Assembly: GCA_013334855.1 (NCBI GenBank)
Contig: JAAXWU010000001.1
Coordinates: 1 to 64,000, forward strand
Reading direction: 5' to 3'
DNA: 64,000 nucleotides
Source: Chlorobaculum sp.
GTDB taxonomy: Bacteria; Bacteroidota; Chlorobiia; Chlorobiales; Chlorobiaceae
The translations under genes were made by a program, and so were the position numbers. Positions 16,270 to 60,130 of the stretch are shown here, one piece after another. The number at the start of each line of letters is the position of its first letter. The stretch's first letter is position 1. The notes under the pieces are model-generated. The model had not been told where the DNA came from, did not search any database, and saw only the letters and a list, made by a program, of their open reading frames with translations.

Positions 16270-17007
16270 ATGAACAAATACCTCTACGACGGCACGCCAG
16301 AGGGGCTGGTGTCGGCCATTGCGGCGATTCTCGATAGCGGCGAAAATCCTGAAAAGACCGTGCTCTCCGTCCGGCAGGATACACTGTTCGAGGAGGGATT
16401 GTTCCTGCGCACCGACTCTGCCCTTGCCGAAGCGCTCTTCGAGCGGCTCCGGCAGCGAGCGCCTGATGCCGTGCAGACGCTCTGGTACTTCACGATGGCC
16501 GAAGCCGACGGGCTGGAGACGAGCCTTTTGCGCTACGTCGCCCTCGCTTTCGAGCATGGCGACCGGGTCAACGGCTACCTGACCCACGCAAGCGTCAAGG
16601 CCATCGTCGGCACGGCCCGCAAGGCTGGCCGTGAATTGCACCGAATGAAGGGTCTCTTGCGCTTCGAACAGCTTCGAGACGGAACCTGGCTGGCTCGGAT
16701 GGAGCCGGACTGCAACGTCCTCCATCCCCTCGCCCGCCATTTCAGCCGCCGCCTGCGCGGGCAGCAGTGGTTCATCTATGACGTCCGCCGCCGGAGCGCT
16801 GCACACTGGAACGGCCGCGACCTCAGCTTCGGTACCCTCGAACAGTTCAGTCGCCCCGAACTCTCCGAAGAGGAAAAAGCCGTCCGGCAGATGTGGCAAT
16901 CCTTCTTCAAGACCATCGCCATCCCCGAACGCAAAAACCCCCGCCTCCAGAAATCCAACATGCCCGCCAAATACTGGAAATACCTCACCGAAAAGCAGGG
17001 GGAGTGA
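16270..17007 (+). CDS. TIGR03915-family probable DNA metabolism protein (DUF4130-like)
   Basis: YDGTPEGLVSAI...; C-term MWQSFFKTIAIPERKNPRLQKSNMPAKYWKYLTEK; adjacent to the radical SAM partner. Confidence 0.85.
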   Translation: MNKYLYDGTPEGLVSAIAAILDSGENPEKTVLSVRQDTLFEEGLFLRTDSALAEALFERLRQRAPDAVQTLWYFTMAEADGLETSLLRYVALAFEHGDRVNGYLTHASVKAIVGTARKAGRELHRMKGLLRFEQLRDGTWLARMEPDCNVLHPLARHFSRRLRGQQWFIYDVRRRSAAHWNGRDLSFGTLEQFSRPELSEEEKAVRQMWQSFFKTIAIPERKNPRLQKSNMPAKYWKYLTEKQGE

Positions 17008-50400: not shown

Positions 50401-50904
50401 CGGGAGGAAGATACTTGGGGATAATCTCTCGATTTGGGATCAAAAGAAATAGCAGATAATGGCCATTTATTATTACTGCCAGACGTCATGCATTATAATA
50501 TTGAGTACGAATACGATTGCATAACAACAGATATGGTGCGTGACTCAAACAATTAGTTGCCCGAAATTCTTTATGTTGGAGTTATAATAGAATCCCTCCT
50601 AATACCTTTCGGTGCTTTTGGCATGACTCAAAGAACTATTACCAGCAAAATTTTTCTTTGTCATTTCTGTGGCCTGTAAGGACAGAGTGATATAGAATTT
50701 TGCTTCTTCTGAAGCAATCAATCGTTATAGTCTGACTGACATTCAGGTAATAAAAAACGGCTCTTCTATCTTTTGAGCCTCCTCATGCAGACTATAACTT
50801 GACATCGAATATTGAAAAGCAGGATTTCATTTTCATTGAAGGGCTTTTTCGGTATGATTATTTTTTCTATAATTCAAAAGAATGATAATGAAAAGGCATC
50901 GATC

Positions 50905-51297
50905 ATGGATGAACTCGAAGGCAAGCTGAGGGAGTTGCTCGAAAAGCATGGGGGCATCAGGCTGGCGTTGCTGTTCGGCTCGGTGGCCAAAGGCACGGCG
51001 GGGTTCGAAAGCGATCTGGATATTGCGGTCGATAAAGGGCGTCCGCTCGAAGTGGAGGAGATCATCGCGCTCATTGAGGAGCTTGCCATGCTGACCGGCA
51101 GGCCAATCGATCTGATCGATCTCGCCACCGTCGGCGAGCCGCTGCTCGGGCAAATTCTCGCCGGGAACAAAAGGATCATCGATAATTCGGCGGAGTATGA
51201 GACGCTGATAAACAGGCACAGCTATAACCTGGAACACGTTGTGCCCCAACAAAGAAAAATCCTTGAAGAGAGAAGAAATGCTTGGCTTGGGCGATGA
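50905..51297 (+). CDS. MNT-type minimal nucleotidyltransferase (MntA-like)
   Basis: LALLFGSVAKGTAGFESDLDIAV (GSx10DxD-type NTase motif). Confidence 0.87.
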   Translation: MDELEGKLRELLEKHGGIRLALLFGSVAKGTAGFESDLDIAVDKGRPLEVEEIIALIEELAMLTGRPIDLIDLATVGEPLLGQILAGNKRIIDNSAEYETLINRHSYNLEHVVPQQRKILEERRNAWLGR

Positions 51298-51494
51298 TCG
51301 CTTATTTAGCGCCGGAATATTGCGTATTTTCTTGTTTAGTGTTACTGGTTTCAGAAATCCAATATGCCCGGCATGTATTGGACGTACTTCACTGAGCAGC
51401 AGGGGAATTGACGGGAGTGCGTAATGGTTTGTGGTATATTCACAGTCAACTATATTAACGCTATATTGTATTTTGAACGGAGGAAGGAAAAGCA

Positions 51495-52559
51495 GTGATA
51501 AAAAAAGCGACTATCAGAAATCTTACAGTATTTTCGGATACTGAACTTGAATTTGGCAATAACCTCAATGTCATTATAGGTGAGAACGGAACAGGTAAAA
51601 CTCATCTGCTGAAATTGCTCTACTCGATTTTAGCTGTAAGTTTTGATGCTAAGAAAAAGTCCCATGCACTACTTCCTACGAAGTCGATGTATCAGCTCCA
51701 GCTTGCTGAAAAGCTTGTGAATGTATTTAAATCTGAGTCTCTTGGAAGAATCGTCAGGAGAAAGCAAGGGCGTGAACGGTGTGATATACAGCTCGATTTT
51801 CTGAAACCTGCTTTCGATATAGCATTCGATTTTGCTACCCAAAGCAAATCGGAGGTGAATATTGTGAATATGCCTGAGGCGTGGTCTGATATAGCTCCGG
51901 CTTTTTTGCCTACAAGAGAACTTTTGACGATTTATCCTAATTTCGTTGCTGTTTATGAAGGACACTATCTTGAATTTGAAGAAACTTGGAGAGATACATG
52001 CTTGCTGCTTGGTGGATTATTGCAAAAAGGTCCTAAAGAAAAGAAGATTCGCACATTGCTTGCACCTCTTGAAGAGGCGATGAATGGTCAGATCGAGCTG
52101 GATAAAAATGGCCGGTTTTATCTGAAAAACAGCAGTGGCAGAATAGAGATGCCTTTGGTCGCTGAAGGATACAGGAAGCTTGGTATGCTTGCCAGATTGA
52201 TAGCGACTGGAGCGCTTCTTGAAAAAGGGTATCTGTTCTGGGATGAACCTGAAGCGAATCTCAACCCTCGAATCATCAAAGCTGTTGCCAAAAGTATTCT
52301 TGATTTGAGCGGTTCAGGCATTCAGGTTTTTATTGCAACACACAGTTTGTTTCTTCTGCGTGAACTGGAGATTCTTTTGTCAGATCGTCGATATAAGGCA
52401 GTCGACGTTCGCTTCTTCGGTCTCCATGATACTTCTGAAGGAGTGAAGGTTACGCAGGGGCCTTCAGTGGATGAGATCGGTGATATCGCGTCTCTTGATG
52501 AATCACTGGCTCAGTCTGACAGATTTCTTGGGTTCGGAGGTGATGATGAATCAGTGTGA
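51495..52559 (+). CDS. AAA/ABC-type ATPase (AAA_15/AAA_21/OLD-like)
   Basis: Walker A GENGTGKT, Walker [29 protein letters not shown]-loop. Confidence 0.9.
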
Positions 52560-53052
52560 TGTCGATGGATTGAGCTTCAGTTTTCCGGAGAATTGGAAAA
52601 TAGCCAGATATGATGATTGGGCGTTTTACCGCAATCAGTTTTCGAGAATGTGGAATGAGATAAAAGCAGTCGATATGATTGCTCTCGATCTGTCATTGAC
52701 TTTCTGGCTGATAGAGGTCAAGGATTATCGAATAAATCGAAGGACAAAGCCGACCAGTCTGCCAGATGAAGTTGCCAGAAAGGTTTATGATACTCTTGCA
52801 GCAATACTGCCAGCAAAGATCAATGCTGCCAGTGCAGAAGAGAAGCAGATGGCCACAGATATCAGCAGTGCGCAAAAAATTCGGGTCGTTTTGCATCTGG
52901 AGCAACCGCGTCAGGATTCCAAGCTGTTTCGACGTGCTATTGATCCAGCCGACGTTCAGCAAAAAATACGAAAACTGCTTCATCCTGTAGATGCTCATCC
53001 GAAAGTTGTCGAAAAGAGGGATATGAGGGGTTTGGCGTGGAGTGTTGATTGA
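52543..53052 (+). CDS. Small protein with PD-(D/E)XK nuclease-like motif, partner of upstream ATPase
   Basis: Overlaps ATPase 3' end by ~17 bp; [24 protein letters not shown] (D-x(n)-ExK). Confidence 0.75.
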
Positions 53053-53109
53053 ATCGATGAACCTTTCAGGTCAACCCGTTGCAGCAGCGTCCCTGGTTCT
53101 ATCCAATTC

Positions 53110-53967
53110 CTACCGCACAATTGTAGGATATAATTTCGACGTCACGAGTATCAGCGCGGTGAGGACTCCGGTGAGGACGGCGAGGTCGGTTCCGATGCCG
53201 AAGGTGCTTGTGCCGCCCTGTACCATCAGGGCGCGGAGGAGGTCAACGAGGTAGGAGAGCGGGTTGAGGTGCGCGACGACTTTGAGCCAGCCGGGCATGA
53301 TCGAGATGGGGTAGATGGCGTTGCTGGCGAAGAAGAGCGGCATCGTCATCACCTGGCCGATGCCCATGAAGCGTTCGCGGGTTTTGACGAGGCAGGCGAA
53401 CATGAGCGAGAAGGTCGAAAAGAGCGCTGCACCGAGCATGACGGCGAGCATCACGCCGCCGAGCGCCAGTGGCGACCAGTTGAGCTGGATGCGCATGGCG
53501 AAGGCCATCACGTAAACGATCACCCCTTGCGCCAGCGCCCGCATTCCCGCCGAGACCGCCTTGCCGAGCACGAGCGCGCCGCGTGGCGCGGGGCTGGCGA
53601 GCAGCTTTTGCAGGATGCCGAGGTCGCGCTCCCAGATCACGCTGATGCCGAAAAAGATCGCGATGAAGAGCACACTTTGCGCCAGAATGCCCGGCGCGAG
53701 GAAGCTGAAGTAGTCGAGTTTGCCGGTCGGAATGGCGTGAAGCTTGCCGAAGACCTGGCCGAAGACCAGCAGCCAGAGCGCGGGCTGGATCGAGCGGGTC
53801 ACGATTTCCGACGGGTCGCGGCGCAGCTTGACCAGCTCCGTCGAGACGATGGCCGCCGTGTCGCGCAGGAAGACGGCGGGGTTGAGCCTCTCAGCCCAGT
53901 CGCCGTGCGGTTTTCCGGGCGCGGGCGACATCCTTGAAGTTGGCTGTGTCACTGAACTCTCCTGCAA
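53110..53967 (-). CDS. ABC-2 type transporter permease (DrrB-like)
   Basis: IQPALWLLVFGQVFGKLHAIPTGKLDYFSFLAPGILAQSVLF. Confidence 0.92.
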   Translation of the reverse strand: MQESSVTQPTSRMSPAPGKPHGDWAERLNPAVFLRDTAAIVSTELVKLRRDPSEIVTRSIQPALWLLVFGQVFGKLHAIPTGKLDYFSFLAPGILAQSVLFIAIFFGISVIWERDLGILQKLLASPAPRGALVLGKAVSAGMRALAQGVIVYVMAFAMRIQLNWSPLALGGVMLAVMLGAALFSTFSLMFACLVKTRERFMGIGQVMTMPLFFASNAIYPISIMPGWLKVVAHLNPLSYLVDLLRALMVQGGTSTFGIGTDLAVLTGVLTALILVTSKLYPTIVR

Positions 53968-59287: not shown

Positions 59288-60130
59288 ATGTTCAATTTGT
59301 TGATGTTCAATGTTGATTGGTCGGCTGGTAGAGTCTCCGTACCGTCTGGGCGAATTTTTGAGTACACCGATGACCACATCAGTGCTCAGTTCCGGGATGG
59401 CAGCAATAACCTACTGTTAGATCGCCTAACTTCCTTGCCGTGTCTTTTCTGTGAAGAAGGCACCACAAATGAAGCGGCATATGTAGGTCAAATCAATCGA
59501 GTGCGCATCACTGGCAAGGACATGTCTCTGGAAATTAGATTCGATACGGAGGTGCCTCCTCTACAAAACAGCATAATGTACGCGAACCGCACCCAGTTGG
59601 ATATGCCTCATGAATTCGAATTTTCAAGAAATCATTGGGCTGTGAAGGATGTGGATCTTTACCGCTTCCTGCTTCAGACTGTTCGTCCACGTCGCCAGCG
59701 TCCGAAAGTGTTTGAGATCGCCGAGCACGAAAGCATCGAGCCTGCCCTCGCATCGGCAATGATGCCTTTCGATTCGGCCTTTAACGTTGTCTATGAAAGT
59801 ATTCGCGAGGCCGCTGACAATGCAGGGCTACGGTGCAGGCGAGCCGATGACATTTGGGAGAATGTCGCGATTATCCAAGATGTTGTTTCACTCATTGACC
59901 GCTCTAGAATTGTTATTTGCGACTGCACGGGACGAAACCCAAACGTGTTCTATGAGGCTGGAATCGCCCATACACTTGGGCGTGACGTAATCCTTATTAC
60001 ACAAAGCGACCATGACATTCCTTTCGACCTTCGGCATCTTCGGTATGTCCGTTATCTAAACAACGGAGAGGGGCGCGCAGAGCTAATGCAGTCTTTGCAA
60101 AATAGAATGAATACACTATTGGGGCATTGA
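59288..60130 (+). CDS. Protein with C-terminal nucleoside 2-deoxyribosyltransferase/TIR-like domain
   Basis: SAMMPFDSAFNVVYESIREAADNAGLRCRRADDIW...RSRIVICDCTGRNPNVFYEAGIAHTLGRDVILITQSDHDIPFDLRHLRYVRY. Confidence 0.85.
   Translation: MFNLLMFNVDWSAGRVSVPSGRIFEYTDDHISAQFRDGSNNLLLDRLTSLPCLFCEEGTTNEAAYVGQINRVRITGKDMSLEIRFDTEVPPLQNSIMYANRTQLDMPHEFEFSRNHWAVKDVDLYRFLLQTVRPRRQRPKVFEIAEHESIEPALASAMMPFDSAFNVVYESIREAADNAGLRCRRADDIWENVAIIQDVVSLIDRSRIVICDCTGRNPNVFYEAGIAHTLGRDVILITQSDHDIPFDLRHLRYVRYLNNGEGRAELMQSLQNRMNTLLGH

What the first reader, a model, noticed from the sequence alone, without database searches (positions are those of the whole stretch)
51495..53052. Candidate undescribed two-gene defence module: AAA/OLD-like ATPase + PD-(D/E)XK-like effector
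The ATPase ([31 protein letters not shown]) overlaps by ~17 bp a ~169-aa protein with [20 protein letters not shown], a D...ExK pattern of PD-(D/E)XK nucleases. The block is visibly AT-richer than its surroundings, sits between two ABC-transporter loci and lies next to an orphan MNT gene. The layout parallels known ATPase-plus-nuclease defences (Gabija, Septu, PARIS, OLD-type), but the partner is neither an obvious HNH, TOPRIM nor UvrD protein.
Basis: partly seen in the sequence, partly recalled or inferred. Interest (0 to 1): 0.62.

Follow-up and report, generated by a model that had tools for sequence, protein, structure and literature searches.

The report
HEC-02 ATPase-nuclease pair in green sulfur bacteria
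This is a two-gene unit, an ATPase plus a small DNA- or RNA-cutting enzyme, that probably helps a green sulfur bacterium resist viruses; the pair is already catalogued as candidate defence system HEC-02, so it is a real but not a new find.

Summary
The two genes are real: a 354-aa OLD-type ABC ATPase (51495-52559) overlaps by 17 bp a 169-aa protein (52543-53052). 'Undescribed' is wrong. PADLOC-DB v2.0.0 holds both as HEC-02 ('Hma-embedded candidate'), matched full length at E 1.9e-151 and 6.8e-62. OLD-ABC + PD-(D/E)XK pairs inside BREX/Hma loci are also in print (PMC12839542). The nuclease call is supported: E58 and K60 are invariant and D44 is 45/46 in 46 relatives. The D..ExK block aligns with NERD nucleases by profile-profile comparison, well above controls. 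Foldseek found no significant solved match. In 50 relatives from many phyla, the ATPase gene lies next to the nuclease gene in all 49 that are not cut by a contig end. Twelve sit in Hma systems, nine with Hma genes on both sides. In this genus the pair sits in a gene-swapping site between a DUF4130 gene and an ABC permease. That site is empty in five genus mates and holds SIR2, MntA-HepT or PDC-S01 candidate defence genes in others. The 'orphan MNT' is an MntA left after its partner HepT was lost. Most likely role: the ATPase senses infection and releases the nuclease. Defence activity and target are untested here. Already known; modest interest.

The parts
51352..53110 (+). Low-GC cassette shared with G014/G015: about 140 bp upstream region plus both genes, inserted next to the ABC permease
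   Evidence: blastn homology to L027/L028 starts at 51352 (82-83%), and runs on into the permease; GC 39-45% vs 60-66%
51495..52559 (+). OLD/AAA_21-type ABC ATPase, HEC-02 ATPase subunit (354 aa), no TOPRIM domain
   Evidence: PADLOC PDLC04146 E 1.9e-151; Pfam AAA_21 1.4e-17; AF2 pLDDT 87, Foldseek to Rad50, SMC heads, PtuA and OLD nuclease
52543..53052 (+). Small PD-(D/E)XK-like nuclease, HEC-02 nuclease subunit (169 aa)
   Evidence: PADLOC PDLC04145 E 6.8e-62; E58/K60 invariant, D44 45/46; profile-profile match to NERD over D..ExK
50812..51297 (+). MntA-like nucleotidyltransferase (antitoxin of the HepT/MntA pair), HepT missing; neighbour, not part of the HEC-02 unit. The coding part homologous to G001 starts about 50900
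   Evidence: NF047752 71.2 bits vs cut-off 60; 80% DNA identity to MntA of G001 at the same site; no HepT in window
53110..53967 (-). ABC-2 permease, right border of the variable insertion site
   Evidence: same border in 13 of 21 genus mates
16270..17007 (+). DUF4130 gene, original left border of the site, now about 34 kb away in this assembly
   Evidence: ORF; homologous stretch in G020 ends beside the site; DUF4130 family call on relatives

Best explanation
The pair is a stand-alone copy of the candidate anti-phage system HEC-02. The OLD-type ABC ATPase acts as sensor and regulator. Its partner is a small PD-(D/E)XK nuclease effector, held with the ATPase and released or switched on when the ATPase meets an infection cue (inferred). 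It then cuts DNA or RNA and stops phage growth, possibly with loss of the cell (inferred). It reached this genome by horizontal transfer into a site, between a DUF4130 gene and an ABC permease, where candidate defence genes come and go. Shown here: family identity, obligate pairing, conservation of both active sites, nuclease motif, defence-rich contexts, hotspot insertion. Inferred: complex formation, trigger, substrate, and protection against phage.
For: Full-length HEC-02 matches for both proteins, and all 46 partner relatives match HEC-02. ATPase gene directly upstream in 49 of 50 relatives, the 50th cut by a contig end. Twelve relatives sit in Hma systems, nine with HmaB upstream and HmaC downstream. 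Walker A, Walker B and H-loop residues and D44/E58/K60 are conserved. hhalign to NERD: probability 81%, E 1.2e-5, score 38.9 against at most 24.6 in 14 control families, on the D..ExK block. AF2 model pLDDT 92 with D44 just before one strand and ExK in the next. Hotspot. Purifying selection. Tree mixing phyla. Published precedent: PMC12839542, PMC12988326.
Against: Foldseek of the nuclease model found no significant match among solved structures. Most Pfam nuclease matches of relatives are weak (best 4.8e-4). No phage-challenge result for HEC-02 was found in the library searched. Some relatives lie among housekeeping genes (e.g. trpE/trpG in Methylobacter).
Confidence: 0.8

Rival explanations
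1. A back-up unit that guards another defence: the ATPase senses phage proteins that inhibit restriction-type systems (as AriA of PARIS senses Ocr) and unleashes the nuclease; in Chlorobiaceae it works away from Hma.
For: Insertion between HmaB and HmaC in many relatives; published proposal that OLD-ABC modules act as back-up effectors in BREX and Hma-type loci.
Against: 38 of 50 loci show no Hma gene in the stretch held, including all six Chlorobiaceae (some contigs are short), so guarding Hma cannot be its only job.
Confidence: 0.3
2. A toxin-antitoxin or addiction module: the nuclease is a toxin and the ATPase its regulator, kept for its own maintenance rather than for defence.
For: Small overlapping operon; two copies on plasmids; patchy presence.
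Against: Recurrent embedding in Hma systems and in a site with other candidate defence genes; no relative of the partner found in phages or viral contigs.
Confidence: 0.12
3. A DNA repair or recombination pair (Rad50/RecF-like ATPase plus nuclease) with a housekeeping role.
For: ATPase fold matches Rad50 and SMC heads.
Against: Patchy: 6 of 395 genomes in the phylum have a strong match; AT-rich insertion with empty sites in relatives; cross-phylum transfer.
Confidence: 0.04

Closest known systems
HEC-02 (PADLOC-DB v2.0.0; Hma-embedded candidate, Payne et al. preprint 10.1101/2024.01.29.577857)
   Same: Both proteins match its models over their full length; two-gene operon; relatives embedded between HmaB and HmaC
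   Different: This copy is not in an Hma system; it sits in a Chlorobiaceae insertion site beside an MntA remnant
OLD-ABC + PD-(D/E)XK pairs in BREX and BREX-related (Hma) loci (PMC12839542)
   Same: Same pairing of protein kinds and same genomic setting in relatives
   Different: The paper's individual loci were not compared here (supplementary data not read)
PARIS (AriA/AriB)
   Same: OLD-type ABC ATPase with a separately encoded nuclease; AriA models hit the ATPase weakly (E 4.5e-20)
   Different: Effector is PD-(D/E)XK-like, not TOPRIM; the HEC-02 model scores far better (1.9e-151)
Septu (PtuA/PtuB)
   Same: ABC ATPase plus small nuclease; PtuA is among the best structural matches of the ATPase
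   Different: Partner has no HNH match

Membership tests
HEC-02 | Nuclease subunit matches the HEC-02 model | tested here: met
   PDLC04145 E 6.8e-62, residues 2-168 of 169
HEC-02 | ATPase subunit matches the HEC-02 model | tested here: met
   PDLC04146 E 1.9e-151, residues 2-347 of 354
HEC-02 | The two genes are adjacent, in one operon | tested here: met
   17-bp overlap; conserved in 49 of 50 relatives
HEC-02 | Embedded in an Hma system (how candidates were found and named; I do not take it as a defining feature, and whether PADLOC's rules require it was not checked) | tested here: not met
   No Hma gene in the window by PADLOC scan of 41 window ORFs; met in 12 of 50 relatives
PD-(D/E)XK nuclease superfamily | Catalytic D..(D/E)xK motif conserved | tested here: met
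   D44 45/46, E58 46/46, K60 46/46; aligns with NERD D..ExK
PD-(D/E)XK nuclease superfamily | Common core fold | tested here: inconclusive
   AF2 order of strands and helices fits but Foldseek gave no significant match
PARIS | AriB TOPRIM/DUF4435 partner | tested here: not met
   No such family for P0001 in Pfam, NCBIfam or PADLOC
Septu | PtuB HNH nuclease partner | tested here: not met
   No HNH or PtuB match for P0001
Gabija / class 1-2 OLD | TOPRIM domain fused to the ATPase, GajB-type helicase beside it | tested here: not met
   ATPase ends at 354 aa with no TOPRIM match; no helicase neighbour
Anti-phage defence system (function) | Protects cells from phage | not testable with these tools
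   Needs a phage-challenge assay

The most novel reading that the evidence does not exclude
HEC-02 is an autonomous immune unit with its own trigger: a nuclease with an unusual invariant YDDWxFY motif, controlled by an OLD-type ATPase, spreading as a small cassette between Hma systems, plasmids and chromosomal defence sites across phyla.
Probability: 0.35. Interest if true: 0.5.

Novelty: already known. Interest (0 to 1): 0.3.

Why it matters
HEC-02 is catalogued but, as far as the papers searched show, untested and with no mechanism. The data here give it a testable anatomy (catalytic residues, obligate partner), show that it occurs on its own outside Hma systems, and reveal a small defence-gene insertion site in green sulfur bacteria. 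If it works, it adds a PD-(D/E)XK case to the group of OLD-type ATPases that control separate nucleases (PARIS, Septu).

Tried and rejected
Foldseek of the nuclease against solved structures: no significant hit. Sequence search of the nuclease alignment against PDB: nothing. Phage and viral contig searches with the nuclease: none; the ATPase has only distant matches in two unannotated phage records. E. coli genomes: none. pPIWI_RE_REase in 297 genomes of the phylum: nothing rang, so no profile could be built. Profile comparison with SduA_C (Shedu): aligned the same D..ExK block but with only 2.5% probability, so not claimed. PARIS, Septu and Gabija membership rejected (see membership test). 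A long gene downstream of the pair in Methylobacter looked like a third component, but it is a large membrane-type protein with no family match, kept only in that lineage. Rfam and tRNA scans around the locus: none. Promoter and terminator scan no better than shuffles.

Full report
OBSERVATION. The stretch is 39-45% GC inside a 60-66% GC setting. Against the two nearest relatives, dN/dS is 0.11-0.13 (ATPase) and 0.12-0.15 (partner), so both genes are kept by selection.

IDENTITY. PADLOC-DB v2.0.0 matches both proteins over their full length to HEC-02: partner PDLC04145 E 6.8e-62, ATPase PDLC04146 E 1.9e-151. All 46 aligned relatives of the partner also match HEC-02. HEC means Hma-embedded candidate; PMC12988326 says several HECs have shown antiviral activity, naming HEC-06, and PMC11411939 discusses HEC-05 and HEC-06 from the Payne et al. 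preprint. No paper on HEC-02 itself was found in the library. The preprint is not held, so I cannot say whether HEC-02 was tested there. PMC12839542 describes OLD-ABC ATPases paired with PD-(D/E)XK nucleases in BREX and Hma-type loci, and notes that such couplings had been reported before.

ATPASE. Pfam AAA_21 and AAA_15. The AF2 model (pLDDT 87) is closest to Rad50 and SMC heads, PtuA of Septu and retrons, with the Thermus OLD nuclease also among the listed matches. Walker A G29/N31/G34/K35, the E224-G225-x-R227-K228 motif (which I read as the ABC signature), Walker B D250 and H283 are invariant; E251 is conserved in 41 of 42. It has no TOPRIM domain, so a nuclease function would have to come from the partner.

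NUCLEASE. Pfam and NCBIfam give no family. Across 46 relatives E58 and K60 are invariant and D44 is present in 45; Y23, D24, W26, F28, Y29 and K80 are also invariant. The AF2 model is confident (pLDDT 92, pTM 0.89), with D44 just before one strand, E58-x-K60 in the next, then a long helix and another strand, which fits the PD-(D/E)XK core order. Profile-profile alignment to 17 NERD nucleases gives 81% probability, E 1.2e-5, score 38.9, and lines up the D..ExK block; 14 unrelated control families score at most 24.6 and the reversed profile 13.4. Foldseek against PDB finds nothing significant. Some relatives weakly hit pPIWI_RE_REase and NERD in Pfam. I conclude that it is very likely a PD-(D/E)XK-type nuclease, while the fold is not independently confirmed.

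RELATIVES AND PAIRING. One scan of genome contigs returned 50 relatives in Chlorobiota, Pseudomonadota, Cyanobacteriota, Planctomycetota, Chloroflexota, Bacillota, Thermodesulfobacteriota and others. The ATPase gene lies directly upstream in 49, usually with a 1-17 bp overlap or a 1-11 bp gap; in the 50th (L071) the contig starts there. Two more complete pairs are on plasmids. The partner tree mixes phyla, with Chlorobiaceae beside Methylobacter, which indicates horizontal transfer.

CONTEXT. Twelve of the 50 loci contain Hma genes beside the pair: HmaB upstream and HmaC downstream in nine, HmaB only where the contig ends soon after in three (L053, L055, L067) (PADLOC counts). Other neighbours include Septu PtuB, a CBASS cyclase and TIR genes.

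THE SITE IN THIS GENUS. The ABC-2 permease to the right was found in 13 of 21 genus members. In five of them (G002, G003, G011, G012, G016) its 3' end lies about 13 bp from a DUF4130 gene: an empty site. In G014 and G015 the pair sits exactly between the two. In G020 the site holds PDC-S01, and in G001 a SIR2-TPR gene with HepT and MntA; both borders are seen in each. G010 and G006 carry a SIR2 gene and HepT/MntA beside the permease, with the far border not seen. In the window the permease side is intact, MntA (80% DNA identity to G001) is left without HepT, and homology to the pair's cassette begins at 51352. So the 'orphan MNT' is best read as a remnant of an earlier cargo of the same site (inference).

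REARRANGEMENT. In the window the DUF4130 gene is at 16270-17007. The 33 kb between it and MntA match two stretches of G020 about 60-100 kb away, one of them inverted. This is either a real rearrangement at the site or a joining error in a 233-contig assembly; it does not affect the pair.

MECHANISM. By analogy with PARIS, Septu and other OLD-type ATPases with a separate nuclease, I propose that the ATPase senses an infection cue and controls the nuclease. The pairing, residues and context are shown; the complex, trigger, substrate and outcome are inferred. Confidence about 0.95 for HEC-02 identity, 0.8 for a defence role, 0.6 for the sensor-effector mechanism.

VERDICT. A real, intact member of an already catalogued candidate defence system. 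Ordinary as a discovery; of moderate interest as an untested system with clear mutants to make, and for the small defence-gene site in green sulfur bacteria.

Noticed in passing
window 16270-17007 and 53110-53967; L118, L154-L158: Variable insertion site between a DUF4130 gene and an ABC-2 permease in this genus: empty in five genomes, otherwise HEC-02, PDC-S01, or SIR2-TPR with MntA-HepT.
   Followed up: partly
window 50812-51297: MntA antitoxin gene without HepT; homology to the complete MntA-HepT pair of G001 stops at the HepT start.
   Followed up: yes
window 17023-50409: 33-kb block of housekeeping genes that in G020 lies 60-100 kb away, part of it inverted; real rearrangement or assembly join.
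   Followed up: partly
window 59288-60130: 280-aa ORF whose C-terminal part matches a PADLOC TIR effector model (E 2e-9, residues 165-261), partial match only.
   Followed up: no
L023 (G023:C202): A second, divergent HEC-02-type ATPase (PDLC04214, E 1e-127) in a Chlorobiaceae genome that also carries the window-type pair.
   Followed up: no
L030:4180-6876: 898-aa protein with HD-CE and HATPase domains just downstream of the pair in a Chlorobiaceae MAG; no PADLOC match.
   Followed up: no
L038 and L039: Nearly identical nucleases in a cyanobacterium (Nodosilinea) and a Planctomycetaceae MAG: recent transfer or a wrongly binned contig.
   Followed up: no
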